64,000 bases of DNA, taken from the NCBI RefSeq assembly GCF_017875465.1, contig NZ_JAGGMQ010000001.1, positions 2,914,001 through 2,978,000 of the forward strand, in the 5' to 3' direction. Position 1 is the stretch's first letter, and the number at the start of each line of letters is the position of its first letter. A program made the translations under genes and the position numbers. This stretch comes from Winslowiella toletana. Its GTDB lineage: Bacteria > Pseudomonadota > Gammaproteobacteria > Enterobacterales > Enterobacteriaceae. Positions 27,132 to 40,064 of the stretch are shown in pieces. Under the pieces are notes generated by a model, which worked only from the letters and a program-made list of their open reading frames with translations, was not told where the DNA came from and made no database searches.

Positions 27132-27208
<77 letters not shown>

Positions 27209-27250
27209 GATTAAGTCTTACAGTGGTGTCTGCCGCTGCAAGCAAAGTGA

Positions 27251-27274
27251 AAAAGGACCTTCGGGTCCTTTTTT
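27251..27274 (+). terminator. Terminator after tRNA-Gly copy 1
   Basis: AAAAGGACC / GGTCCTTTT stem with a TTCG tetraloop and T-run. Its presence means that tRNA-Gly copy 1 forms a complete transcription unit separate from the island behind it. Confidence 0.9.
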
Positions 27275-27552
27275 GCGTTCTGCGTTTAGCTTCATGCCGC
27301 CGATAAATTAAATTATCTCCGCTTATCAGCTTATTTCTCCCTTTCTTATATCCATTATTCAGGTTTAGTTATCTGATTTAATCATTTGCCAGAAAATGGG
27401 ATATGCCTTCAGAATGAATTTCCAGGTAGTTCCTGACTGATCTACCGCGATTAATTCGATTAAAACAGCTCACGCAATTCGGTGTTTTTTTCGTTGTGTT
27501 TATCACGGCGAACGTGATTTCTTTTTGGCTATATCAGGAAAAGGTTCTTCTT
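27275..27552 (+). promoter_or_regulatory. AT-rich region upstream of the island ABC transporter
   Basis: No gene is seen here. It must hold the promoter of the transporter operon. A palindrome ATCACG-N5-CGTGAT at 27502-27518, 35 bp before the start, is a candidate operator for an unknown regulator; no regulator gene lies in the island. Confidence 0.4.
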
Positions 27553-28446
27553 ATGAAGTTATCCACATTAATGCTGCCGCTATTGATGGCGGGAAGTTTA
27601 TCTTCGGCATGGGCGGCAGAACAGAATGTTCCGGCGCACACCACCTTTAACGTTTCCGCAGATAATCAGCTAAAGAGTAAACTGCCCGAAGATATTCTGA
27701 AGCGTGGATATATCCTGGCCGGAACCAATCCAAATACACCACCCACTACCTTTTATCAGGCAGATAATAAAACGCTTGCCGGGCGCGAAATCGATATTAT
27801 GAACGCTGTCGCCGCCCGCTTAGGGGTTGAGGTACACTGGCAGGATACCGGTGGTTTCGACAATATTATTCCAGGTCTGAAATCTGGCCGCTACGATGTG
27901 GCGTTATCTAATATTAATGCCACCAAAAAACGCATGGACCAGGTAGATTTCGTCAGCTATTACGACGCCTCACGGCTTGGGGTGATTTCGCGTAAAGACG
28001 CGAATATCGCGCCTTTTACCTCCTTCCTTGACGTCTGTGGCAAAGAGATTGGCGCGGGGGCTGGCACCACTCAGCTGACACGGCTGGATGACGCCAGCAA
28101 GGCGTGTCAGGCGGCGGGTAAAGAAGCGATTAAAGTTGCGGTATTCCCGGATCGTCCATCAGGTGTGCAGGCGGTAGTCAGCGGACGTGTGCCGCTGTTC
28201 TTTGGTCCGTATGAGGGCCTGACCTGGCAGGTGCAGCAGGTTAAACCGCTGACCATGAGCGGCGAGATCCATGTCAATGACGCGCCGGTCTCCATTGCTT
28301 TCCCGAAAGCGTCTCCGCTGGAAGAGGCGGTGCAGGCTTCACTGAACTCGCTGATCAAAGATGGCACTTATCAGAAGATCCTCGATAAGTGGTCAATTGG
28401 CTTTGGCGCGGTGAAAGAAGCGAAGCGTAACGAAGAGATTCTATGA
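27553..28446 (+). CDS. Amino-acid ABC transporter, periplasmic binding protein
   Basis: A 297-aa polar-amino-acid-type binding protein (SBP family 3). Residues 1-22 are a Sec signal peptide (MKLSTLMLPLLMAGSLSSAWAA). The family core is visible: LAGREIDIMNAVAARLGVEV, FDNIIPGLKSGRYDVALSNINATKKRMDQVDFVSYY, and the C-terminal GTYQKILDKWSI. Two cysteines in the mature part (CGKE... and ...KACQ) could form a disulfide. ATG 27553 is chosen over an upstream frame start because it begins with the signal peptide. It overlaps the permease gene by 4 bp. In the context described for the island it corresponds to YxeM of the B. subtilis S-(2-succino)cysteine operon; the ligand is inferred, not shown. Confidence 0.88.
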   Translation: MKLSTLMLPLLMAGSLSSAWAAEQNVPAHTTFNVSADNQLKSKLPEDILKRGYILAGTNPNTPPTTFYQADNKTLAGREIDIMNAVAARLGVEVHWQDTGGFDNIIPGLKSGRYDVALSNINATKKRMDQVDFVSYYDASRLGVISRKDANIAPFTSFLDVCGKEIGAGAGTTQLTRLDDASKACQAAGKEAIKVAVFPDRPSGVQAVVSGRVPLFFGPYEGLTWQVQQVKPLTMSGEIHVNDAPVSIAFPKASPLEEAVQASLNSLIKDGTYQKILDKWSIGFGAVKEAKRNEEIL

Positions 28447-29375
28447 TGAATGCCGGGCAACCAGAGCAGCAAACTGAAGAGCTACGGATAGTCGGTAAGA
28501 AGTATATCGGGCGCTGGATCAGCGCCCTGTTAGTCGCGCTGGTGCTGTTAGCCATCGCCCACTCAATGATAAACAACCCCCGTTTCGAATGGTCGGTGAT
28601 TGCCGCCAGCTTTACCGAAGAGTCGATTCTGCAGGGGGTGCTGATGACCCTGAAGCTGACAGCGATTTCAGTGGTGCTCGGTTTTGCCGGCGGTACGGTG
28701 CTGGCGCTGATGCGTCTCTCCGCCAACCCGGTGCTGGTGGCCGTCAGCTGGGCTTATACCTGGTTCTTTCGTGGCGTGCCAATGCTGGTACAGCTGTTCC
28801 TCTGGTACAATATTGCGGCGCTCTATCCCACTATTTCCCTCACCCTGCCGTTTGTCGGCGAGGTCTGGAGTGCATCGGCTAACGCCTTAATCAGTCCGTT
28901 TAGCGCGGCGGTGATTGCGCTGGTGATGCACCAGTCCGCTTATGCCGCTGAGATTGTACGCGCCGGTATTCAGAGTGTTGGCGCCGGACAACTTGAAGCC
29001 GCGCGCGCCTTAGGTTATCGCCCGGCGCAGATTTTCCGCCATACCGTATTGCCCCAGGCGATGCGCGCGATATTACCGCCCGCCGGTAATGAAGTTATCG
29101 GTCAGCTGAAAACCACTGCGGTGGTATCGGTGATTTCACTGCAGGATGTATTGTTCTCAGCACAGATTATTTATCAGCGCACCTATGAAGTTATCCCGTT
29201 ATTACTGGTCGCCACGTTGTGGTATTTGCTGATGACTTCGCTACTGTCGATTGGACAATATTATGTTGAGCGTCATTTCAGCCGCAGCAGTACGCAACGC
29301 AAAGTAAAGCGTGAAAGCGTAAACGTCACGACGCCGGCGTATAGCATCGAATCAGGGAGAGCCAGCAATGGGTGA
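28443..29375 (+). CDS. Amino-acid ABC transporter, permease
   Basis: A 310-aa inner-membrane permease of the HisM/GlnP family. It has an N-terminal membrane segment (about 22-43) followed by the family core with the binding-protein-dependent permease motif GAGQLEAARALGYRPAQIFR and the downstream LPQAMRAILPPAGNEVIGQLK. The C-terminal 30 residues are hydrophilic and charged. It starts in an ATGA overlap with the binding-protein gene and overlaps the ATPase gene by 8 bp, so the three subunits are translationally coupled. It corresponds to YxeN in the yxe-like set. Confidence 0.9.
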   Translation: MMNAGQPEQQTEELRIVGKKYIGRWISALLVALVLLAIAHSMINNPRFEWSVIAASFTEESILQGVLMTLKLTAISVVLGFAGGTVLALMRLSANPVLVAVSWAYTWFFRGVPMLVQLFLWYNIAALYPTISLTLPFVGEVWSASANALISPFSAAVIALVMHQSAYAAEIVRAGIQSVGAGQLEAARALGYRPAQIFRHTVLPQAMRAILPPAGNEVIGQLKTTAVVSVISLQDVLFSAQIIYQRTYEVIPLLLVATLWYLLMTSLLSIGQYYVERHFSRSSTQRKVKRESVNVTTPAYSIESGRASNG

Positions 29376-30129
29376 GACGATTCAATTACGTAACGTCACC
29401 AAGCGTTTTTCCGGTAATACGGTGCTGGATGGCATCGATCTCGATATTCCCGCCGGTTCGGTAACGGTGATCCTCGGGCCTTCCGGTTCCGGTAAATCGA
29501 CGCTGCTGCGTTGTATTAATCATCTGGAAAAGCTGGATGGCGGCACCATCCGTATTGGTGGCGAGCTGGTGGGGTATAAACAGGTTGGTCAGTCGCTGTA
29601 TGAACTGAGCAGCCGCCAGATTGCTGAGCAGCGCAGCCGAACCGGCATGGTGTTTCAGCAGTTTAATCTGTTTCCGCATCGCACCGTGCTGCAAAACATT
29701 ACTGATGCGCCGCAGCGGGTGAAAAAGCAGAGCCGTCAGCAGGCGACCGCCAAAGCCCGTTCGCTGCTGCAACAGGTTGGTCTGGCGACGCGTGAAGATG
29801 ACTGGCCGCAACAACTCTCCGGTGGCCAGCAGCAGCGCGTGGCGATTGCGCGCGCGCTGGCGATGGATCCTGAAGTGATGCTGTTTGATGAACCGACCTC
29901 CGCCCTCGATCCCGAACTGGTGGGTGAAGTGTTACAGGTAATCAAAAGACTGGCGCACTCCGGCATTACCATGGTGGTGGTGACCCATGAAGTGGGCTTT
30001 GCCCGCGAAGTGGCCGACAACATTATTTTTATGGAAGAGGGCAAAATTGTGGCGTCCGGGCCGGGTAAAACGGTGCTGGATGACACGCAAAATGTCCGTT
30101 TCCGCCACTTTCTGTCGACGGTGTTATAA
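29368..30129 (+). CDS. Amino-acid ABC transporter, ATPase
   Basis: A 253-aa GlnQ/HisP-type ATPase. Walker A GPSGSGKS is at 37-44, the Q-loop is in [11 protein letters not shown], the signature is [15 protein letters not shown], Walker B is VMLFDEP followed by TSALDP, and the H-loop is VVTHEVGFA. It completes the importer with the two genes before it. The BisC-like gene begins 32 bp downstream and is probably in the same transcript. It corresponds to YxeO in the yxe-like set. Confidence 0.93.
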
Positions 30130-30161
30130 CGCCGTCTGTACCCCTCTGCCGGACCGCCTTG

Positions 30162-32453
30162 ATGACTGACAGATCCCACAGTTCACACTGGGGCGCGTTT
30201 AGCGCCCGCTTGCATGATAATCGTCTGACGATTACTCCTTTCGCCGGCGATCCCGATCCCAGTCCGCTGTTAAAAAACTTTGAAAATGTACTGAATCATC
30301 CGGTGCGCGTTACGCAGCCCATGGTGCGGCGCGGCTGGCTGGAAGATGGCCCGGGTGCTGATGAGCGACGTGGATCCGATGACTATATCGCCATTAGCTG
30401 GGAGCAGGCTTACCAGCTGGCAGCCGACGAGCTGCAGCGCGTCAGTGCGGAATCTGGCCCGCAGGCGGTGTTTGGCGGCTCTTACGGCTGGTCGAGCGCC
30501 GGACGTTTTCATCATGCCCAGAGCCAGGTGCATCGCTTTCTGAATACGGTGATTGGCGGCTATGTCCGTTCGGTCAACAGCTACAGTTCCGGCGCCGCCT
30601 CGGTGATCCTGCCGCATATTGTCGGCGACATGAATGAAGTGGCGCGCCGTGGCGTGAGCTGGGAAGAGATTTCACAACATACTGAGGTGCTGTTGTCGTT
30701 TGGTGGTCTGGCGCTGAAAAACGCCCAGGTTGCCAGCGGTGGCCTGAGTGAGCATACCGAGCGTGGCTTTATCCATGCCGCAGCGACGCGCGGCACGCAG
30801 TTTCTTTCGGTCAGCCCGCTGCGCAGCGATCTGCCACAGGAGGCGCAGGGCGAGTGGATCCCGATTCGTCCCGGCACCGATGCGGCGCTGATGCTGGCGT
30901 TGCTGCATACGCTGGTGGCAAACGACTGGCATGATCAGGCGTTTCTGGATCGTTACTGCGTCGGCTGGGACACGCTGGCGGCCTATATCGGTGGTGAAGC
31001 CGATGGGCAGGTGCGTGATGCCGGATGGGCGGCGGCGATCTGTGGTATTGATGCGCAGCGTATTGTCGCACTGGCGGCGCAGTTGCAGGGCCGCCGGGTA
31101 CTGGTCAGCGTCGCTCACGCCTTACAGCGTGCGCAGCATGGCGAACAGCCGGTGTGGCTGGCACTGGTGCTGGCGGCGGCGTTAGGCCAGCCTGGTTTGC
31201 CGGGCGGGGGTTTTGCCTATGCGCTGGGCGCGCTCGGTCATTATGGTAAGCACCATAATCTGGCGTCGTTTCCCGCGCTGCCGCAGGGCAAGAATGGTAT
31301 TGACCGTTTAATCCCGGTGGCACGTATCGCCGATATGCTGCTGCATCCCGGTAAGTCGTTCCGCTATAACGGCCGCGATCTGACTTATCCGACGATAAAG
31401 CTGGCCTGGTGGGCTGGTGGCAACCCTTTCCATCACCATCAGGATCTGGCGCGTTTACGCCAGGCGTTCAGTAAGCTGGATACCTTAATTGTCCACGAAG
31501 TTGCCTGGACCGCCACCGCCCGCCATGCCGATCTGGTACTGCCCTGCACCATGACGCTGGAGCGCGAGGATATTGGCGGCGCTCCGACCGATCGCCATCT
31601 GGTGGCGATGCAACAGGTAGCGCAGCCGCACGCGCAGGCGAAAGATGACTACACCATTTTTGCCGAACTGGCGCGGCGTTTAGGGCGTGAAGCGGAGTTT
31701 ACCGAAGGACGCACCGCGCGCCAGTGGCTGATTTATCACTATCAGCAGTTGCAGCAACGGCTGGCGGCGCAGGCGGTGGTGATTCCGGACTTTGCGCAGT
31801 TCTGGCAGCAGGGCGTGCTGGCGTTGCCGCAAATCAAGGATGGCGGCCGCATGCTGAAAGCGTTTCGCGCCGATCCGCAGCAATATCCGTTGCCGACCCC
31901 AAGCGGGAAAATTGAGATTTTCTCGGCCACCATCGCCGCTTTTGCCGATGCGGATTGTCCCGGTCACGGCCAGTGGCTGACGCCGCTGGAACAGCCAGAT
32001 GCACAGCATCCGCTGTATCTGATTGCTAATCAGCCCGCGTCGCGTCTGCACAGTCAGCTCGATTATGGTCAGCACAGTGTTGATATGAAGCGGCGTGGTC
32101 GCGAAGTGTGTCGTATGCATCCGCATGATGCGCGCAGTCGCGGCATCAGTGATAACGATGTGGTGCAGATCGTGAATACGCGCGGCATTGCGCTGGCATG
32201 TGTCGATATCAGCGAGGCGATCATGCCCGGTGTGGTGCAGCTGCCGACTGGCGCCTGGTATGATCCGGTTGACCCGCTGGCGGCGCGGCCGATGTGCCGT
32301 CATGGTAATCCGAATGTGCTGACGCTGGATATTGGTACTTCGGCGTTAAGCCAGGGCTGTAGTGGGCAGATTACGGTGGTTGATGTGCTGCCGTTTAACG
32401 GCGAACCACCGGCGGTACAGGCTTTCCTGCCACCGCTGGCAGGAAAACGCTGA
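30162..32453 (+). CDS. BisC/TorZ-like molybdenum sulfoxide/N-oxide reductase
   Basis: A 763-aa bis-MGD oxidoreductase of the DMSO reductase family, biotin sulfoxide reductase branch. The family block [25 protein letters not shown] spans about 104-128; the molybdenum ligand is expected to be S142 in [10 protein letters not shown] (compare YSTG in DMSO reductase). Other marks are [36 protein letters not shown] and the C-terminal cofactor domain with LPTGAWYDP. There is no twin-arginine signal and no N-terminal Fe-S cysteine motif, so it is predicted to be cytoplasmic like BisC. Its transporter-linked position suggests it reduces an S-oxide related to the imported compound (methionine sulfoxide is a known BisC substrate); this is inference. 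Start at ATG 30162; the ribosome binding site is weak. The stop abuts the stop of the convergent MmgE/PrpD gene. Confidence 0.85.
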
Positions 32454-33776
32454 TTACTTTACGCTCAGCAGTGCACAGAGCGCAGGCAGGTCGTCTGCCG
32501 CGCGCAGCTGGCTGCGCGTCACTATCTGCTGTCGCTGGCTTTCGCTGTGGTTCGGCAGGCAGCTGCGCAGCTTGCTGGTCAGATCCAGCGGAATAGCGAG
32601 GCTCTGCTGACGGGTGACGCGCTGCTGCAGACGTTCGCCACTGCTTAACCATAGCGTCACCTGATGGAAGCGCTGGCCGGGATTAAGCGCATCCGGCGGC
32701 GCACTCTCATCCGGGCAACGCACCGCTTTCTCTGCCAGCGCCGCAATCTCCGGGTTTAGCGGTCCTTCGGCAAAATCCTCAACCCGCAGGTTGTCGCGCA
32801 GCAGGGCGATAGCCACCACATACTCCAGACTGAAACGCGCTTCGATACCATTCTGCGGATGGCGGATAAACGCGGCAATATCCCCGCCCGGTGGAAAGGC
32901 GATGTCAATGCGCTGAATCGCCGCCGCCAGCGCCGCGACACTGTGGCCTTGTTGCAGCCAGGCACTGCGCAGCTGACGCGCCGCATCGGCGGCGCTGTGG
33001 GTGCCGGAGCAGGTGGGATAAGGTTTAAACTCCAGCCCCGGCGCGACGATGCGCCATGGCGCGCCCCAGCTGGCGGTCAGTTTTTCCGGTTGTTGTTGCC
33101 CGGCGCAATACGCGTGCAGGAAACTCTCCAGTACCTGTTGCGGCTGCCCATCAAAGCCGGCCAGCGTCAGCAGGATCGCGCTGACCGCTGCCTGCGCGGC
33201 AAGCCCGGCGTGCAGCGGTTTCACCGCGCTGCCAAATTGCGCGCGCAGACCGCTGGCCTGCGTCGCCGCCAGACCGAGGATCACCGCGGTTTGCTCCGCG
33301 CTGGCGTCCAGCAGACACGCGGTTGCCGCCGCTGCCGCGATAACACCAAGGGTGGCGGTATTATGGAAGCCAAGCGTGTAGTGCTGTGGCCCGGCCGCCA
33401 GCCCCAGACGACCGGCCACTTCGACGCCGATGACATATGCATCGAGAAAATCGTCGCCACTGATTTCCGGCCGCTGCGCCGCTAACGCCAGCAGGGCCGG
33501 CAGAATCACCGTGCCCGGATGACCGCGAAAATCGGCATGAAAATCATCAAAGTCCAGCGCGTGCCCGGCGTAGCCCAGCAATAGCGCCTGGCTCAGACTC
33601 TCTTCACCGCGATAAACCTGGCGCAAACTGCGCAGCCCGGAATCGGCAATCTCACCGTTCACAACCGGCAGGGTGACGGCAATAAAATCCAGCAGACCGG
33701 CACGGGCTTTAGCGCGCGCCTCCTCTGATGGGCGGGTGCTGACAATCAGCGTGGCGAGCTGTTGCGCTAAGCTCAT
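32454..33776 (-). CDS. MmgE/PrpD family protein (YxeQ-like)
   Basis: A 440-aa protein of the MmgE/PrpD family, which includes 2-methylcitrate dehydratase and cis-aconitate decarboxylase. The N-terminal helical domain has the family motif YAGHALDFDDFHADFRGHPGTVILPALLALA; the second domain has FKPYPTCSGTHSAADAA. Its reaction is not known. It is the last gene of a four-gene minus-strand operon (lyase, acetyltransferase, deacylase, this gene) and overlaps the deacylase by 4 bp. B. subtilis yxeQ encodes the same family in the same type of operon, also without an assigned step. A hydratase, dehydratase or isomerase role on a dicarboxylate would suit the family. Confidence 0.85.
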   Translation of the reverse strand: MSLAQQLATLIVSTRPSEEARAKARAGLLDFIAVTLPVVNGEIADSGLRSLRQVYRGEESLSQALLLGYAGHALDFDDFHADFRGHPGTVILPALLALAAQRPEISGDDFLDAYVIGVEVAGRLGLAAGPQHYTLGFHNTATLGVIAAAAATACLLDASAEQTAVILGLAATQASGLRAQFGSAVKPLHAGLAAQAAVSAILLTLAGFDGQPQQVLESFLHAYCAGQQQPEKLTASWGAPWRIVAPGLEFKPYPTCSGTHSAADAARQLRSAWLQQGHSVAALAAAIQRIDIAFPPGGDIAAFIRHPQNGIEARFSLEYVVAIALLRDNLRVEDFAEGPLNPEIAALAEKAVRCPDESAPPDALNPGQRFHQVTLWLSSGERLQQRVTRQQSLAIPLDLTSKLRSCLPNHSESQRQQIVTRSQLRAADDLPALCALLSVK

Positions 33777-34924
33777 GCTTTCACCAGCGCCTTAACCGCC
33801 AGTTGCAGCAGATAGCGGGCAGTGGGAAACAGGGCGCGATCGTCGACGCGGAATTCCGGATGGTGCAGGGCAAAAGGGCCACCGGAGCCAACCATCACAA
33901 AAGCGCCGGGGATCTGCTGCTGATAGAACGCAAAGTCTTCGCCAATCGGACTGGCCTCGACGCGCCGCGTCTCAAAACCGACCTCTGACGCCTGCTGTAA
34001 GGCGAAATCCACCCAGTCTGCATCATTGACCACCGATGGCGGACCCGGCTGCCAGTTAAGCGTGATATCGCTGGCGAAAGCCGCGCCGATACCTTGCGTC
34101 ACTTCGCGGAAACGGCGTTCGATCAGCTCACGGGTCTGTTGATCAAAACTGCGCACCGTGCCTTCCAGCCAGGCGCGATCCGGGATCACGTTCCAGGTGC
34201 TGCCGCTGTGGATCTGGGTAATTGATACCACCGCATTTTCGCTGGACTGCACATTCCGCGCGATCAGGGTTTGCAGCGCGGCAATCAGTTGTCCGGCAAT
34301 GACAATCGGATCGTTGCCCTCATGGGGACGCGCGGCGTGGCTGCCGGTGCCTGCAATGGTGATATCGAAGCGATCGACACCGGCGGTCAGTGCCCCGGCT
34401 TTGCTGCCGAGGACGCCGACCGGCAGGGTCGGATCGTTATGGATGCCAAAGATCACCCGCGCATTATCCAGCGCGCCGGTCGCCAGCAGCGTGGGCGCGC
34501 CATGTCCGGTCTCTTCCGCCGCCTGGAACAGAATACGCACGGTGCCGGGCAGGTTCTCTTCCTGCGCTTTCAGCATTATCGCCGCGCCGAGCGCTGCTGA
34601 GGTATGAAAATCATGTCCGCAGGCATGCATCACGCCAGAGTGTTGTGAAACGTACGCCACGCCCGATTTTTCCTCGATCGGCAACGCATCGATATCAGCG
34701 CGCAGCACCACCAGCGGCCCTGTCTGCTGACCGCCGATTTCCGCTACCAGACCGGTGGCGAGCGGCAGATCGAGCACGCGGATATGATGACTTTCCAGCG
34801 CCGCTTTAATCCGTGCAGTGGTAGCAAACTCCTCGTTGGAGAGCTCAGGATAACGATGCATTTCATGGCGGAAATCCTGAATAAAGCGCGCCAGATCCTG
34901 ATGTTGTGAGGGGATAGCTAACAT
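33773..34924 (-). CDS. M20-family N-acyl amino acid deacylase (YxeP/HipO-like)
   Basis: A 383-aa metal-dependent amidohydrolase. Metal-site residues are visible: D77 and the LRADIDALPI block (74-83), C102-G-H104 in HACGHDFHTSAALGAA, and the catalytic pair E137-E138 in FQAAEETGHGAP. A dimerisation (lid) domain fills the middle, and the C-terminal metal ligand lies in FALHHPEFRVDD. The family removes acetyl or other acyl groups from amino acids and cysteine derivatives. Its partner N-acetyltransferase is encoded 1 bp upstream, which suggests an acetylate-cleave-deacetylate route; YxeP performs the deacetylation of N-acetylcysteine in B. subtilis. Confidence 0.88.
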   Translation of the reverse strand: MLAIPSQHQDLARFIQDFRHEMHRYPELSNEEFATTARIKAALESHHIRVLDLPLATGLVAEIGGQQTGPLVVLRADIDALPIEEKSGVAYVSQHSGVMHACGHDFHTSAALGAAIMLKAQEENLPGTVRILFQAAEETGHGAPTLLATGALDNARVIFGIHNDPTLPVGVLGSKAGALTAGVDRFDITIAGTGSHAARPHEGNDPIVIAGQLIAALQTLIARNVQSSENAVVSITQIHSGSTWNVIPDRAWLEGTVRSFDQQTRELIERRFREVTQGIGAAFASDITLNWQPGPPSVVNDADWVDFALQQASEVGFETRRVEASPIGEDFAFYQQQIPGAFVMVGSGGPFALHHPEFRVDDRALFPTARYLLQLAVKALVKA

Positions 34925-34925
34925 T

Positions 34926-35480
34926 TTAAACTCCTGTTAAGGTGCGCGTTTCACGCACTGGCTGACGCGCCAGCCACCCGGCATGGCTGGCGTCATCCAG
35001 CACTTTCTTCATATACAGTGTGATATGGCCTTTGCCGAGATCGGTTTCATGCATTGGCTGAAAACCGCGCTTCAGGTACATCGCGCGCAGCCACGGATGG
35101 CTGGTGGCGGTGCCCAGCGACACCGCAGGCGCTTTCAGCTCGTCACGCAGCACCTCCTGTTCCAGCCAGCTCAGCAGCTGGTTGCCGTAACCCTGGCCGT
35201 TAAACGCCGGATGGGCGCCAAACCAGCCGATATGCGGCAGGCCAAAAGGCCCCGGCAGCGGCCCCCAGGGATAACGAATGGTTACCGAGGCGACCATCTG
35301 CTGATCAATAAACAGGGCATACACCCCATGCTGTTGCAAATGGCCTGTGACTTTCGCCAGGTCCGCCGTCGCCGCATCAAAATGAATCCCCAGTGCTTTG
35401 ACCGGGGCGTAAGCCGCGAGCATCAGCGCCAGATAGTCATCACGGTCAGCAGTGGTAAGCGCACGGTAGTGGGCTGTCAT
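34926..35480 (-). CDS. GNAT N-acetyltransferase (YxeL-like role)
   Basis: A 184-aa GCN5-related acetyltransferase. The acetyl-CoA-binding motif A is HPAFNGQGYGNQLLSWLEQ (90-108, Q/R-x-x-G-x-G/A type), preceded by the beta-4 strand region and followed by MYLKRGFQPM, the typical motif B. It overlaps the lyase gene upstream by 4 bp and is followed after 1 bp by the M20 deacylase, so the three are tightly coupled. By analogy with YxeL it would acetylate the amino group of a cysteine adduct before cleavage; the sequence alone gives only the fold. Confidence 0.8.
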   Translation of the reverse strand: MTAHYRALTTADRDDYLALMLAAYAPVKALGIHFDAATADLAKVTGHLQQHGVYALFIDQQMVASVTIRYPWGPLPGPFGLPHIGWFGAHPAFNGQGYGNQLLSWLEQEVLRDELKAPAVSLGTATSHPWLRAMYLKRGFQPMHETDLGKGHITLYMKKVLDDASHAGWLARQPVRETRTLTGV

Positions 35481-36859
35481 GGGGTAAGTTCCTCTTGCGG
35501 TGATAAATGACCGGACTGACGGGCAAAGTTAATCACCTCATCCACTTTTTGCGGCGCGCTACCGATGTAACTGGCCGGATCGAGCCAGCGCTCCAGCTCG
35601 GCCGGGGTCATGCTGGCGGCAATCACCGGCTGTTCCAGCAGTAGCGCCTGGAAAGATCGCTGTTGCTCCCAGGCCTGCATGGCGCACTGATAAATCAGAT
35701 GATGGGCGCTCTGCTTGCCGAGCTTTTTGCCGGTTTCAAACATCACTTTTTCCGACAGCATCAGACCATCCTGCATTTGCAGGTTGGCCAGCATGCGCGG
35801 CTTATTGACGGTGATATCCGGCAGAATGGCGCGCGCGCTCTGTAACTGGGCCGATAAATAGATGCAGATCTCCGGCAGCGCCAGCCACTCTGCGCGCCAG
35901 CTCATCGCATCGCGTTCGTGTTCAACATGCATCGAGTGATAAATCAGACTGGCGCTGCTCAGCAGCGGCGCGGTTAAGCTGGCTAATCCTTCCAGCGCCG
36001 CCGGATTGCGTTTATGCGGCATGGTGGTGGAGCCAATTTTACCGATGCTGAACGGCTCTTCGATCTCGCTGATCTCCGTGCGCATCAGGTTATAAAGTTC
36101 GTTACCGATCTTGCCCAGCGTGCCGCTGATCAGCACCGCCACTGAAGCAAACTCGGAGAAGCGATCGCGTGCCGCCTGCCAGCCTATATTGGGGGTGTTT
36201 AATCCCAGCTGTTGCAGCGCCAGACGCTCAACCCGTGGACCTGCCTCACCAAGCGCGGCGTGGGTGCATATTGCACCACTGAGATTGCCGGTCAACAGGC
36301 GTGGGGCAATCTGCTGCAGGCGATCAAGATGACGGATAAATTCATCCAGCCAGACCGCGACCTTAAAGCCAAAGGTGGTGGGTTGCGCCTGCATGCCGTG
36401 GGTGCGACCCGCCATCAGGGTATACTGATGCTGTTTCGCCAGCTTTATCAGTGTTTCACTGAGCGCCACACAGTCACGCACAATGATTGCCAGCGCCTGC
36501 TTAAGCTGTAAAACCGTGGCGGTATCGACAATATCCTGGGTGGTGACGCCGTAATGAATATATTCACCAGCCTCGCCGCACTGCTGTTGTAGCGCCTTCA
36601 GCGTCGGCATCAGCGAATGTTTCATCTGCGCCGCGGCGCTGGCGATGGCGTCAATATCCAGCAGGCTGGCGTCCGCCCGGCTGGCAATCGCGTCAGCCGC
36701 CTGTTGTGGAATAATGCCCAGCTTACCTTCGGCTACCGCCAGCGCCACTTCGACGCTGACCTGTTGCGTCAGTCGGTTATGCTCTGACCAGATATTGCGC
36801 ATTTCTGCGGTGCCAAAATTATTGCCAATTAAAAGATAATCGATTGGATGTGAGGCCAT
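35477..36859 (-). CDS. Fumarase/aspartase-superfamily lyase (candidate S-(2-succino) lyase)
   Basis: A 460-aa lyase of the adenylosuccinate/argininosuccinate lyase superfamily, whose members remove fumarate from N- or S-succinyl compounds. The three conserved regions are HYGVTTQDIVDTA (102-114), LMAGRTHGMQAQPTTFGFK (148-166) and the signature GSTTMPHKRNPAALEGL (276-292) with the catalytic loop serine S277. It is not the housekeeping PurB by context: it begins an operon with an N-acetyltransferase and a deacylase. A superfamily lyase named 2SL, cleaving N-acetyl-S-(2-succino)cysteine into fumarate and N-acetylcysteine, has been described in yxe-like clusters of Dickeya and Enterococcus; this gene is the natural candidate. 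A carboxymuconate cycloisomerase-type activity is an alternative. Confidence 0.75.
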   Translation of the reverse strand: MASHPIDYLLIGNNFGTAEMRNIWSEHNRLTQQVSVEVALAVAEGKLGIIPQQAADAIASRADASLLDIDAIASAAAQMKHSLMPTLKALQQQCGEAGEYIHYGVTTQDIVDTATVLQLKQALAIIVRDCVALSETLIKLAKQHQYTLMAGRTHGMQAQPTTFGFKVAVWLDEFIRHLDRLQQIAPRLLTGNLSGAICTHAALGEAGPRVERLALQQLGLNTPNIGWQAARDRFSEFASVAVLISGTLGKIGNELYNLMRTEISEIEEPFSIGKIGSTTMPHKRNPAALEGLASLTAPLLSSASLIYHSMHVEHERDAMSWRAEWLALPEICIYLSAQLQSARAILPDITVNKPRMLANLQMQDGLMLSEKVMFETGKKLGKQSAHHLIYQCAMQAWEQQRSFQALLLEQPVIAASMTPAELERWLDPASYIGSAPQKVDEVINFARQSGHLSPQEELTP

Positions 36860-37215
36860 TAATATCTCATTATTTTAAGGGTTAATTTTACGGTGTCGGA
36901 ATCGATAAATTAATTACGCTTCCGCTACCTGAAATTAGCCTTAGTTTCCTCTATCATTTCTTTGATCCAGCACAGCGCGCAAGTGTTTTACTGGCTATAG
37001 CTGAATTTCATCTATACTTTTGCGAATTTATGAAAAGCAAATGGCCAGTATGTGATTGCTTATTTTTAATTTTCTCGTAGCATAATGAAAAAGAACTCTT
37101 TCTCAGATCATATTTACCCTGATTATTCCTCTTTAATTGGGTCATATTTTTTCTCTCTGCCGGGAACGGGATTTTTATGCCCGTTATTTAATGCATAAAT
37201 AAACAGGTTATTATC
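36860..37215. promoter_or_regulatory. AT-rich divergent region between the lyase operon and the dehydrogenase gene
   Basis: A 356-bp non-coding region that must contain the promoters of the leftward lyase operon and the rightward dehydrogenase-monooxygenase pair. It is much richer in A and T than its neighbours. A small hairpin AACGGG / CCCGTT lies at 37165-37185 in the leader of the rightward gene. No regulator gene and no recognised operator is seen. Confidence 0.4.
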
Positions 37216-38289
37216 GTGCTTGCCATAAAATCACCGCACAGCTATTACCATCAGTCCGGTCTGATTGCCCGGGCGGGTGAATATATCGCGCCGCTGGCGA
37301 CCCGCATCGCTATTATTACCAGCCCGCAAGCCTGGCAGGCGGTTAATCCGCAGCTGGAAACCAGCCTGCGGCAACACAACATTGATTATCAGGTCGATTT
37401 CCTTGCTGGCGCATGCAGCGATGTGGCGGTTGACCACCATCAGGCTCGCACCGGACAGTATGGCGCGAGCTTAGTGCTGGGGGTTGGCGGCGGCCGGGTG
37501 GTGGATTGCGCCAAAGCGGTGGCGAACCGTTTTGCGCAGATGGAACTGGTTACCCTGCCAACGGTGGCCGCGACCTGCGCCGCCTGGTCGCCGGTCAGTA
37601 TTATCTATAACGCACAGGGTGGACAGGAGCGCAGCGTACCGATGGCGCGGATGCCGGCGCGAGTGCTGGTCGATCCGGAAGTGATTGCGCAGAGTGATGT
37701 GCGTTTTCTGAAGGCTGGCATTATTGATGCGCTGGCCAAGTGGTATGAATTTGTCCCTTATCAGCAGCAAGATCCCGACAGCCTGTCGCTGAAGCTGAAA
37801 GTTCAGGCGGCGCGGATGGCGGTAGAGGTGTTTGAGCAATATGGCGCTGAAGCGGTACGTGACAATCAGCAGCATAAAGTGACACCGGCGCTGATTAAAG
37901 TGATTGACGCGAATATTGCGCTGGCCGGGCTGGCCAACAGTATGCGCGATGAAACCCCGACGCCTGGCGTGGCCCATGCGATTCATAACCGTCTTACGCA
38001 CCAGCCGGAATTGCATCACTGGTTGCATGGCGAAAAAGTCGGTTTCTGTCTGCTGGTACAGTCGCTGCTGGAGAGCCAGAACGGTCAGCCCGATGAAAAA
38101 CTGCTGTCACTGCTGCGCCAGTATGATGCGCCGCTGACGCTGTCACCGCTGCATGGCGATCGCGCCGCCGTTCTGGCGACCATTGCGCAGGAAGTAAAAT
38201 TCTCTGCGGCCAATGCTGCGCGCTTACCTTTCTCACTTGCCGCCAGCGCCATTGAACAGGCGCTGCTGGCAACCGATCGCGCTTTTTGA
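37216..38289 (+). CDS. HcxA/GldA-like NAD(P)-dependent dehydrogenase
   Basis: A 357-aa iron-containing-alcohol-dehydrogenase-superfamily protein, closest in visible motifs to E. coli HcxA (YbdH), a hydroxycarboxylate dehydrogenase. The nucleotide site is LVLGVGGGRVVDCAKAVANR, followed by the shared block LPTVAATCAAWSPVSIIYN. The metal ligands are expected to be the aspartate in GIIDALAKWYE and the histidines in GVAHAIHNRLT and HHWLHGEKVGF. The start is GTG at 37216. It is 17 bp upstream of the FMN monooxygenase gene. HcxA reduces 2-oxo acids; if the monooxygenase releases oxaloacetate or another 2-oxo acid, this enzyme could act on the product. That link is inference. Confidence 0.8.
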   Translation: MLAIKSPHSYYHQSGLIARAGEYIAPLATRIAIITSPQAWQAVNPQLETSLRQHNIDYQVDFLAGACSDVAVDHHQARTGQYGASLVLGVGGGRVVDCAKAVANRFAQMELVTLPTVAATCAAWSPVSIIYNAQGGQERSVPMARMPARVLVDPEVIAQSDVRFLKAGIIDALAKWYEFVPYQQQDPDSLSLKLKVQAARMAVEVFEQYGAEAVRDNQQHKVTPALIKVIDANIALAGLANSMRDETPTPGVAHAIHNRLTHQPELHHWLHGEKVGFCLLVQSLLESQNGQPDEKLLSLLRQYDAPLTLSPLHGDRAAVLATIAQEVKFSAANAARLPFSLAASAIEQALLATDRAF

Positions 38290-38306
38290 TTTCCTAAGGA
38301 TCGAAT

Positions 38307-39620
38307 ATGTCTGATACCTCAACCAGCCGCCGTCAGCTGCGTCTTGGACTTTTTGTGCAGCCGCTGGGGCATCATGTCAGTGGCTGGCGTATGACGCAGC
38401 AGCTCGGCTCGCCGACTGATATTGAATGGCTGACGTGGATTGCGCGCAAAGCCGAAGAGGGTACCTTTGATATGTTTTTCGTCGGCGATGCGCTGGCGAC
38501 CAGCGTCTATCGTTTGCCGTCAACCATGGCGCGCCTTGAGCCGCTGACGCTGTTATCGGCGCTGGCGGTGCAGACTAAACATATCGGACTGGCGGCTACC
38601 GCCTCCACCACCTTTAGCGATCCGTTTAATCTGGCGCGTATTTTCTCCTCGCTGGATCATATCAGCCACGGGCGTGCGGCATGGAATGTGGTGACTTCGT
38701 TCTCTACTGATGTGGCGCGCAATTTCAGCCGTGACGATATGCCGGGCCATGCAGAGCGTTATGCCACTGCCCATGAGTTTCTTGAGGTGGCATTCAAGCT
38801 ATGGCAGGGCTGGCAGGAAGGCGCGGTGCAGCCGGATAAACAGAGCGGGCAATATTTTGTCGATGAGAAGATCCAGCCGATCAATCATCAGGGCAAACAT
38901 TTCCAGGTGCAGGGACCGCTGAATATTACCCGCTCGCCGCAGGGGCGTCCGGTGATTATTGAGGCGGGTTCGTCAGCCGATGGACAGAAACTGGCGGCGG
39001 CTACCGCCGAAGTGGTGTTTACCGCTGCGGCCACGCTGGAAGATGCGCAGGCCTTCTACCGTTCGCAGAAACAGCTGGTGGTGGATGCCGGACGTCATCC
39101 CGATCATCTGCTGATCCTGCCGGGCGTGATGCCGATTGTCGGCCACACCCGTGAAGAAGCCTGGGCGACCTGGCGCGAACTCAATCAGCTGGTGGATATC
39201 GATAACGGGATTAAACAGCTCTCCACCCGTTTTGGCATGGACTTAAGCCAGTTTCCGCTGGATGGCCCGGTGCCGGAAGCACCGAATATTGAAGGTGGAC
39301 AGAGCCGGGTAAAATTGCTGACCGATTTAGCCGAGCGCGAAAATCTGACGCTGCGTGAGCTGGCGGCGATCGCCGCCGGGTCCCGTGGGCATCGGGTGCT
39401 GGTCGGCACCGCTGAAGAGATCGCCGATGATTTCCAGCGCTGGCTGGAGCAGGGGGGCGCCGATGGCTTTAATATCATGCCAGCGATTATGCCGGAGCAG
39501 CTGTCGCTGTTTGTCGAGCTGGTGATCCCGGAGTTAAGACGTCGTGGCCTGTTCCGTGAGGAATACCAGTACAGCACGCTGCGGCAAAATCTTGGCTTGC
39601 CAGCGCCAGAAAAGGTCTAA
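38307..39620 (+). CDS. FMN-dependent monooxygenase, NtaA/SnaA/DszA family (YxeK-like)
   Basis: A 437-aa flavin monooxygenase of the bacterial-luciferase fold. Family marks are RLGLFVQPLGHHVSGWR at the start, ARKAEEGTFDMFFVGDA (46-62), PLTLLSALAVQTKHIGLAATASTTFSDPFNLAR, and LDHISHGRAAWNVVTS (FMN site region). The C-terminal half has GTAEEIADDFQRWLEQGGADGFNIM. Such enzymes need a separate flavin reductase, which is not encoded nearby. NtaA/DszA-family enzymes split C-N or C-S bonds; YxeK of B. subtilis cleaves the C-S bond of N-acetyl-S-(2-succino)cysteine to oxaloacetate and N-acetylcysteine. The gene ends the island and is followed by a strong hairpin. Confidence 0.85.
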   Translation: MSDTSTSRRQLRLGLFVQPLGHHVSGWRMTQQLGSPTDIEWLTWIARKAEEGTFDMFFVGDALATSVYRLPSTMARLEPLTLLSALAVQTKHIGLAATASTTFSDPFNLARIFSSLDHISHGRAAWNVVTSFSTDVARNFSRDDMPGHAERYATAHEFLEVAFKLWQGWQEGAVQPDKQSGQYFVDEKIQPINHQGKHFQVQGPLNITRSPQGRPVIIEAGSSADGQKLAAATAEVVFTAAATLEDAQAFYRSQKQLVVDAGRHPDHLLILPGVMPIVGHTREEAWATWRELNQLVDIDNGIKQLSTRFGMDLSQFPLDGPVPEAPNIEGGQSRVKLLTDLAERENLTLRELAAIAAGSRGHRVLVGTAEEIADDFQRWLEQGGADGFNIMPAIMPEQLSLFVELVIPELRRRGLFREEYQYSTLRQNLGLPAPEKV

Positions 39621-39632
39621 CTCTATGATTCT

Positions 39633-39665
39633 GCCCCTCTTCAGCCACTTCGGCTGAAGAGGGGC
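39633..39665 (+). terminator. Hairpin at the end of the island
   Basis: A perfect 14-bp stem GCCCCTCTTCAGCC / GGCTGAAGAGGGGC with a 5-nt loop, 12 bp after the monooxygenase stop. The trailing T-run is poor (GTTAGC), but the stem is strong. Confidence 0.7.
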
Positions 39666-39721
39666 GTTAGCATGCTGTGTCGAACTTTTAGGCGTTCGCA
39701 CTTCCTTTGTGAACAAAGGAC

Positions 39722-39750
39722 TTGCCATCATTTTCGAACAAGGCCATAAT
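39722..39750 (+). promoter_or_regulatory. Promoter of tRNA-Gly copies 2 and 3 with a structured leader
   Basis: TTGCCA, 17 bp, CATAAT, a near-consensus sigma-70 promoter 121 bp before tRNA-Gly copy 2. The leader can form two hairpins, CCATTCC/GGAATGG (39756-39776) and AACCTTTT/AAAAGGTT (39782-39803). It lets these two tRNAs be made although the island separates them from the promoter at 27063. Confidence 0.65.
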
Positions 39751-39870
39751 AGCGTCCATTCCTGATAGGGGAATGGTTAAAAACCTTTTCTAATCAAAAG
39801 GTTAGAGATCGAAATTGGGTCTCGGAATGTAAAAAAATGATTTTCGCTGTTTACAGCAACCAGTTCCAAA

Positions 39871-39946
<76 letters not shown>

Positions 39947-39988
39947 AAATATGATTTTGCTGTCTTACAGCACACCAGTAGTTCCTAA

Positions 39989-40064
<76 letters not shown>

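What the first reader, a model, noticed from the sequence alone, without database searches (positions are those of the whole stretch)
27553..39620. Candidate S-(2-succino)cysteine breakdown island that carries both known cleavage enzymes
Seen: within 12 kb are an SBP-3/HisM/GlnQ amino-acid importer, a GNAT acetyltransferase, an M20 deacylase, an MmgE/PrpD protein, a luciferase-fold FMN monooxygenase and a fumarase-superfamily lyase. Known: B. subtilis yxeKLMNOPQ encodes the same families (monooxygenase, acetyltransferase, three transporter parts, deacylase, MmgE/PrpD) and degrades S-(2-succino)cysteine by acetylation, cleavage and deacetylation; a lyase (2SL) replaces the monooxygenase in some clusters, including one in Dickeya. 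Inferred: this island has both the oxygen-dependent and the lyase branch, which would allow aerobic and anaerobic thiol salvage. To my knowledge the two have been presented as alternatives, so co-occurrence would be new.
Basis: partly seen in the sequence, partly recalled or inferred. Interest (0 to 1): 0.82.

Follow-up and report, generated by a model that had tools for sequence, protein, structure and literature searches.

The report
Two-way succinocysteine salvage gene island
An enterobacterial genome carries a gene cassette that looks made for rescuing cysteine damaged by fumarate, with two different candidate cutting enzymes side by side and a third enzyme that may flip the damaged molecule's handedness so that it can be cut.

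Summary
The lyase is a 2SL orthologue by identity (60% to characterised Enterococcus italicus 2SL) and synteny; my tree of it was inconclusive. The monooxygenase has a yxe-type context but is not shown to be YxeK: 47% identical, not the genome's best YxeK match, its own enterobacterial clade, AU tests undecided. Co-occurrence is not new (Hillmann 2022: three of 102 loci) but recurs: 12 of 80 named 2SL loci, in Enterobacterales and Bacillaceae. The best lead is the MmgE/PrpD protein (YxeQ type, function unknown). Its active-site pair Arg84/Tyr133 matches iminodisuccinate epimerase (65 of 67 locus rows, 0 of 29 controls), and it tracks the cleavage genes (14 of 15 genomes with them, 2 of 183 without; uncorrected for relatedness). 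I propose that it epimerises the succinyl carbon of S-(2-succino)cysteine, feeding a stereospecific lyase. Against: Niallia taxi lacks it, and Pectobacteriaceae keep it in another context. No activity was tested.

The parts
27132..27208 (+). tRNA-Gly(GCC) at the left edge of the island
   Evidence: ARAGORN; its 27-bp 3' end is repeated exactly at 39920-39946 and 40038-40064
27553..28446 (+). SBP_bac_3 amino-acid binding protein (YxeM role)
   Evidence: PF00497 108 bits
28443..29375 (+). ABC permease (YxeN role)
   Evidence: PF00528
29368..30129 (+). ABC ATPase (YxeO role)
   Evidence: PF00005; best NCBIfam TcyN 326 bits, below cut-off 406
30159..32453 (+). bisC-family molybdopterin S/N-oxide reductase, accessory (not in the finding)
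   Evidence: TIGR00509 872.8 bits, cut-off 1017.55; at >=50% identity in 5 of 80 named 2SL loci
32454..33776 (-). MmgE/PrpD protein, YxeQ type; proposed succinyl-carbon epimerase
33773..34924 (-). M20 deacylase (YxeP/ScmP role)
   Evidence: PF01546; TIGR01891 364 bits over cut-off
34926..35480 (-). GNAT acetyltransferase (YxeL/ScmL role)
   Evidence: PF00583; GNAT found in 80 of 80 2SL loci, within 60 bp of the lyase in 75 of 80
35477..36859 (-). S-(2-succino) lyase, 2SL
   Evidence: 59.5% identity to the lyase of E. italicus DSM 15952, 72% to Dickeya lyases
36860..37215 (.). divergent intergenic region between lyase and dehydrogenase
   Evidence: alignment with 7 relatives keeps short conserved blocks; no operator identified
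37216..38289 (+). GldA-like iron-containing alcohol dehydrogenase (not in the finding)
   Evidence: PF00465, PDB glycerol dehydrogenases up to 158 bits; >=50% identity in 18 of 80 2SL loci
38307..39620 (+). NtaA/DmoA-family FMN monooxygenase of a separate enterobacterial subfamily (YxeK-like by context)
   Evidence: TIGR03860 543 bits; 47% to B. subtilis YxeK; trees
39871..40064 (+). two tRNA-Gly(GCC) genes (39871-39946, 39989-40064), right edge of the island

Best explanation
The island is a yxe/scm-type cassette for salvaging cysteine from S-(2-succino)cysteine (2SC). Proposed route: the ABC importer takes up 2SC; the GNAT N-acetylates it; N-acetyl-2SC is cleaved by 2SL to fumarate and N-acetylcysteine and, probably, by the FMN monooxygenase with O2 to oxaloacetate and N-acetylcysteine; the M20 enzyme releases cysteine. 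Shown here: gene content, orthology of the lyase to characterised 2SL by identity and synteny, and the recurrent pairing of both cleavage genes. Inferred from published enzymes: the reactions. Inferred from context only: that this monooxygenase acts on N-acetyl-2SC. New proposal: chemical succination should give both configurations at the succinyl carbon, 2SL (like other fumarase-superfamily lyases) should accept one, and the MmgE/PrpD protein (YxeQ type) epimerises that carbon so that all of the adduct can be used. Two cleavage enzymes plus an epimerase would then cover both stereoisomers with or without oxygen.
Against: No activity was measured. The LLM is no better supported as YxeK than as a separate C-S monooxygenase. 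Identity to YxeK does not predict context: of 18 Pseudomonadota regions around YxeK-like proteins, 17 gave no GNAT, M20 or PrpD hit (distant genes may be missed). The lyase passes the NCBIfam adenylosuccinate lyase cut-off (TIGR00928, 373.6 against 326.2 bits), though the E. italicus and Dickeya lyases do too; my lyase tree was inconclusive. In Pectobacteriaceae the unlinked PrpD lies beside an AraC regulator, an alpha/beta hydrolase and a TonB receptor, which hints at another role. Niallia taxi (2SL + YxeK-type LLM) has no PrpD match. Two locus PrpDs (L139, L142) lack both Arg84 and Tyr133.
Confidence: 0.66

Rival explanations
1. The monooxygenase is a third kind of S-alkylcysteine C-S monooxygenase: the island shares importer, acetylase and deacetylase but splits two substrates, the lyase taking N-acetyl-2SC and the LLM another N-acetyl-S-substituted cysteine.
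For: Long stem of the 13- and 20-row enterobacterial clade; YxeK's best match in this genome is another protein; AU test allows union with the YtnJ/NTA group (p 0.594); a cmo-like cluster with acetylase, deacetylase, importer and LLM exists in Pantoea agglomerans.
Against: Outside its own clade the best BLASTP scores are YxeK-clade proteins and L228 (422-431 bits), against 340 for YtnJ, but sulfonate-context proteins follow at 420. Its closest outside relative in the tree, L228, also sits beside PrpD and an amino-acid importer. Six of seven LLM-only islands keep GNAT, M20 and PrpD.
Confidence: 0.33
2. The MmgE/PrpD protein is not an epimerase but a dehydratase or decarboxylase that processes a downstream C4-C6 acid or a different adduct.
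For: Solved family members include 2-methylcitrate dehydratases and cis-aconitate decarboxylases; 7bra was published as IRG1/CAD (PMC7347537); the Pectobacteriaceae copy has a TonB/AraC context.
Against: CAD residue H277 is Cys in 67 of 67 locus rows; Arg84 and Tyr133 of IDS epimerase are kept in 65 of 67 while 0 of 29 control proteins have both; fold nearer to IDS epimerase than to CAD or dehydratases; 7bra's mechanism was inferred from docking in the parts I read.
Confidence: 0.4
3. The two cleavage enzymes are plain redundancy left by horizontal assembly, with no division of labour.
For: Both single-enzyme versions of the same island exist: LLM-only (7 islands) and lyase-only (Kosakonia, Enterobacter; L096, L107, L116). 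None of the other 20 loci checked shares the tRNA-Gly site outside W. arboricola.
Against: The linked pair is kept in seven named genera (lyase 73-95%, LLM 78-97% identity), and a second, differently built pairing exists in Bacillaceae.
Confidence: 0.25

Closest known systems
Bacillus subtilis yxeKLMNOPQ (scm) operon
   Same: FMN monooxygenase, acetyltransferase, single-SBP amino-acid importer, M20 deacetylase and MmgE/PrpD
   Different: The window adds 2SL, a bisC-family reductase and a GldA-like dehydrogenase, is split into divergent units, and its monooxygenase is only 47% identical to YxeK
2SL-type yxe loci of Enterococcus italicus and Dickeya (PMC9706529)
   Same: Orthologous lyase next to GNAT, with importer and M20
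   Different: No LLM at those loci; they use another importer type; the two Dickeya species seen keep PrpD elsewhere in the genome
Niallia taxi / Bacillus sp. B1-b2 2SL operon with YxeK-type LLM
   Same: Both cleavage genes in one locus
   Different: LLM of the Bacillus YxeK clade, in the slot held by PrpD in L138, L141 and L144
Iminodisuccinate epimerase with stereoselective C-N lyase, Agrobacterium BY6
   Same: MmgE/PrpD fold and active-site residues; substrate is the nitrogen analogue of 2SC; partner is a stereoselective lyase
   Different: C-N not C-S substrate; only 28% identity to the window protein in the structural alignment; the analogy is mine
cmo/ytm-ytn S-alkylcysteine clusters (CmoJ/YtnJ)
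   Same: Acetylase, LLM monooxygenase, M20 deacetylase, importer
   Different: YtnJ 42.7% identity; no PrpD or lyase within the stretch seen in the Pantoea example

Membership tests
2SL, S-(2-succino) lyase | Class I lyase with high identity to characterised 2SL | tested here: met
   59.5% to the E. italicus DSM 15952 lyase, 72% to Dickeya; other lyases compared 24-43%
2SL, S-(2-succino) lyase | Sits in a yxe-type locus beside the acetyltransferase | tested here: met
   4-bp overlap with GNAT; 80 of 80 relatives have GNAT in the locus
2SL, S-(2-succino) lyase | Own clade apart from PcaB/PurB-type lyases | tested here: inconclusive
   Long-branch outgroup rows nest inside the set; the NCBIfam purB cut-off is passed by this lyase and by the E. 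italicus and Dickeya lyases alike
2SL, S-(2-succino) lyase | Cleaves N-acetyl-2SC to fumarate and N-acetylcysteine | not testable with these tools
   needs enzyme assay
YxeK | >50% identity to the B. subtilis enzyme (criterion of PMC9706529) | tested here: not met
   47% over 434 aa
YxeK | Best YxeK match of its genome | tested here: not met
   454.7 bits at C1:606628 against 443.2 for the window protein
YxeK | One clade with Bacillus YxeK | tested here: inconclusive
   p-AU 0.488 for it, 0.594 for the rival union
YxeK | Genomic context with acetylase, importer, deacetylase, PrpD | tested here: met
[quoted passage not shown]
   GNAT, importer, M20 and PrpD are present
Iminodisuccinate-epimerase-type MmgE/PrpD | MmgE/PrpD fold close to 2hp0 | tested here: met
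Iminodisuccinate-epimerase-type MmgE/PrpD | Bases H99 and Y145 and active-site Arg kept | tested here: met
   H86, Y133, R84
Iminodisuccinate-epimerase-type MmgE/PrpD | Epimerase activity | not testable with these tools
   needs enzyme assay
cis-aconitate decarboxylase (IRG1/CAD) | His277 (CAD numbering) | tested here: not met
   Cys256 at that column in the window and in 67 of 67 locus rows

The most novel reading that the evidence does not exclude
The YxeQ/ScmQ-type MmgE/PrpD protein, listed as of unknown function in PMC9706529, is an S-(2-succino)cysteine (or N-acetyl-2SC) succinyl-carbon epimerase. Bacterial 2SC salvage is then a stereochemical funnel: spontaneous succination makes both configurations, and cells use an epimerase, or a second cleavage enzyme, or both, so that a stereospecific lyase can consume all of it. 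This would also reassign the structure published as Bacillus IRG1 (7bra).
Probability: 0.42. Interest if true: 0.75.

Novelty: new variant of a known kind. Interest (0 to 1): 0.6.

Why it matters
2SC is a marker of fumarate stress in diabetes, obesity and fumarate-hydratase-deficient tumours (PMC9706529), and the characterised routes for breaking it down are bacterial. If both cleavage enzymes and an epimerase work together, this explains why two 'alternative' enzymes are kept in one cassette, gives YxeQ a function, and predicts that assays with unresolved 2SC have mixed two stereoisomers. The island family gives natural single- and double-enzyme variants for testing.

Tried and rejected
Rejected: 'co-occurrence is new' (PMC9706529). 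Rejected as a proof of YxeK: percent identity, because 17 of 18 regions around YxeK-like proteins (49-58%) in Pseudomonadota gave no GNAT, M20 or PrpD hit (the exception is L228). One more YxeK-like gene, in G432, has PrpD next to it by coordinates; I did not fetch it. Not resolved: the deep place of the LLM clade (long branches). The lyase tree placed long outgroup rows inside the set and was not used. Considered and dropped: PrpD as cis-aconitate decarboxylase (His277 column is Cys). The first control set for the PrpD residues used the longest ORF of each locus, wrong in several, and was replaced; both gave 0 of 29. The controls are the 29 loci that one search returned beside the own-genome one, which are among the strongest Pfam matches, so they lean to canonical dehydratases. 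In one search I dropped two of the first 69 rows because they are not from 2SC loci (L241, the own-genome paralogue, and L034). The other 67 are all rows with a 300-residue match in the loci held; some are the same gene fetched twice, and L228 lacks GNAT and M20. Looked for a shared operator in the divergent promoter: only short conserved blocks, no named site. Niehaus 2018, Matthews 2022 and Cokesa 2004 are not held: nothing read of them except their titles in reference lists.
Full report
1. What is there. Searches confirm all the gene families in the finding at its coordinates, and add two genes it did not name: a bisC-family molybdopterin S/N-oxide reductase (30159-32453) and a GldA-like iron-containing alcohol dehydrogenase (37216-38289). 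The order is importer SBP-permease-ATPase and reductase on the plus strand; PrpD, M20, GNAT and lyase on the minus strand; then dehydrogenase and monooxygenase on the plus strand. The island lies between one tRNA-Gly(GCC) gene (27132-27208) and two more (39871-39946, 39989-40064), that is inside the orn - tRNA-Gly array - queG locus. Winslowiella arboricola (L069) has the same ten genes at the same site at 92-98% identity. Of four other arrays of the genus that I fetched, none holds island genes: G933 has about 15 kb with a chitinase-like protein and type II secretion genes, and G369 has gaps of at most 1.7 kb (labels for the G933 genes are mine, read from the translations). None of the other 20 loci checked has a tRNA-Gly in the stretch fetched, so in other genera the island lies elsewhere. 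It varies between relatives and looks laterally acquired.

2. The lyase. A scan of one genome per species with an alignment of the lyase found 132 relatives, and the best 80 were kept. They include Enterococcus italicus DSM 15952, the strain whose 2SL was characterised (PMC9706529; I read parts 1-3 of 6 and passages), and two Dickeya species. Identity is 59.5% to E. italicus and 72% to Dickeya, against 24-43% to the other lyases compared. GNAT was found in 80 of 80 loci and within 60 bp of the lyase in 75 of 80. I file the lyase as 2SL by orthology and synteny. Against this: it passes the NCBIfam adenylosuccinate lyase cut-off (373.6 against 326.2 bits), but the E. italicus and Dickeya lyases do as well (367.7 and 367.1), so that model does not tell them apart. 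A tree did not separate outgroups cleanly and is not relied on. Activity is not tested. Most named records call it 'adenylosuccinate lyase'.

3. The monooxygenase. It is 47% identical to B. subtilis YxeK (P0308). It forms a strongly supported enterobacterial clade (13 rows 100/100; 20 rows 100/100, some rows the same gene fetched twice) on a long stem. Its nearest outside relative (99/89) is L228, an unnamed Pseudomonadota protein that also lies beside an importer and PrpD. AU tests reject neither union with Bacillus YxeK (p 0.488) nor with the YtnJ/NTA-type group (p 0.594). In this genome YxeK's best match is another protein (454.7 against 443.2 bits). From the window side, outside its clade, the top scores are YxeK-clade and L228 proteins at 422-431 bits, then proteins from other contexts from 420 down, YtnJ 340 and 3sdo 308. 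Of 18 regions around YxeK-like Pseudomonadota proteins, 17 gave no GNAT, M20 or PrpD hit. PMC9706529 applied >50% identity to the B. subtilis enzyme when looking for close YxeK homologues, so its survey may have missed this subfamily (inference).

4. Both enzymes together. PMC9706529 already states that 2SL and yxeK rarely (three times in 102 loci) occur together. In my sample, 12 of 80 named 2SL loci have both within 10 kb: nine Enterobacterales (L069-L073, L086, L089, L094, L126) with the window-type LLM, and three Bacillaceae (L143, L146, L147) with a YxeK-clade LLM. A Niallia taxi megaplasmid (L007) is a further example. Pantoea piersonii, P. latae and Ca. P. deserta hold the LLM outside the lyase locus (3 of 17 genomes tested); in P. 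piersonii it lies beside PrpD, about 295 kb from the lyase on the same contig. LLM-only islands (L009, L206-L211) and lyase-only islands (L096, L107, L116) of the same build also exist. Among the 11 named loci with the window's importer type, 8 have both enzymes. In a draw of 198 family genomes the lyase is in 11, the LLM in 8 and both in 4, less than 3 kb apart in all 4 (Fisher p 3.3e-4, not corrected for relatedness). In this group the two are positively associated rather than alternatives.

6. Proposed mechanism. 2SC is the sulfur analogue of iminodisuccinate. For iminodisuccinate, an epimerase (of the MmgE/PrpD family) and a stereoselective C-N lyase are both needed (title of Cokesa 2004 in the reference list of PMC7347537). 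Fumarate addition to thiols should give both configurations at the succinyl carbon (my inference); a synthesis from maleic anhydride saw three N-acetyl-2SC peaks of one mass (PMC11820211 passages). I infer that 2SL takes one configuration and that the PrpD protein supplies it. The Bacillaceae 2SL operons fit loosely: the slot after the deacetylase holds PrpD in L138, L141 and L144 and a YxeK-type LLM in L143, L146, L147 and L007. Searches of open-licence PMC for YxeQ, iminodisuccinate epimerase, MmgE/PrpD with cysteine and epimerase, succinocysteine with diastereomer (none) and 2-succino with diastereo- gave no title or abstract start that makes this link; I opened passages of PMC9706529, PMC12757645, PMC6302742 and PMC5270733 and found it in none. 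Subscription papers are outside that library.

7. Against this reading. Niallia taxi has 2SL and a YxeK-type LLM but no PrpD match in its genome. Two locus PrpDs (L139, L142) lack the Arg/Tyr pair. The Pectobacteriaceae copy sits by an AraC regulator, an alpha/beta hydrolase and a TonB receptor. The association counts are not corrected for common descent. No enzyme was assayed.

8. Accessory genes. The GldA-like dehydrogenase (>=50% identity) accompanies 2SL in 18 of 80 loci, including lyase-only Dickeya, Brenneria and Kosakonia, and occurs in five of seven LLM-only islands (L009, L206, L207, L210, L211). The bisC-family reductase is in 5 of 80 loci and in LLM-only islands L009, L207 and L210. 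Possible roles (reduction of a 2-oxo acid product; reduction of adduct sulfoxides) are guesses.

Noticed in passing
window 27132-40064; L334-L337: The orn - tRNA-Gly array - queG locus is a variable-cargo site in this genus: here the 2SC island, elsewhere about 15 kb with chitinase-like and type II secretion genes (G933), about 15 kb of unread cargo (G944), or gaps of at most 1.7 kb (G369).
   Followed up: partly
window 37216-38289: GldA-like iron alcohol dehydrogenase conserved with 2SL in 18 of 80 loci, with and without the monooxygenase; function in the pathway unknown.
   Followed up: partly
window 30159-32453: bisC-family S/N-oxide reductase between importer and PrpD in a subset of islands; could reduce adduct sulfoxides.
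   Followed up: partly
L316 5607-8713: In Pantoea piersonii the monooxygenase and PrpD sit together, far from the 2SL locus, next to a TonB receptor.
   Followed up: partly
L308, L310, L317: In Pectobacteriaceae the epimerase-type PrpD lies beside an AraC regulator, an alpha/beta hydrolase and, in the two loci where it was scanned (L308, L317), a TonB receptor.
   Followed up: partly
G000 C1:606628 and C1:4943204: Two further NtaA/DmoA-family monooxygenases in this genome; the first matches YxeK slightly better than the island's enzyme does.
   Followed up: partly
G432 C1:137794-140384: An unnamed Pseudomonadota genome has a YxeK-like gene (55%) next to a PrpD-family gene, like L228; by coordinates only.
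   Followed up: no
L149: Pseudomonas silvicola plasmid record with fragments resembling the LLM-type island (66% LLM in four pieces); left as it is.
   Followed up: no
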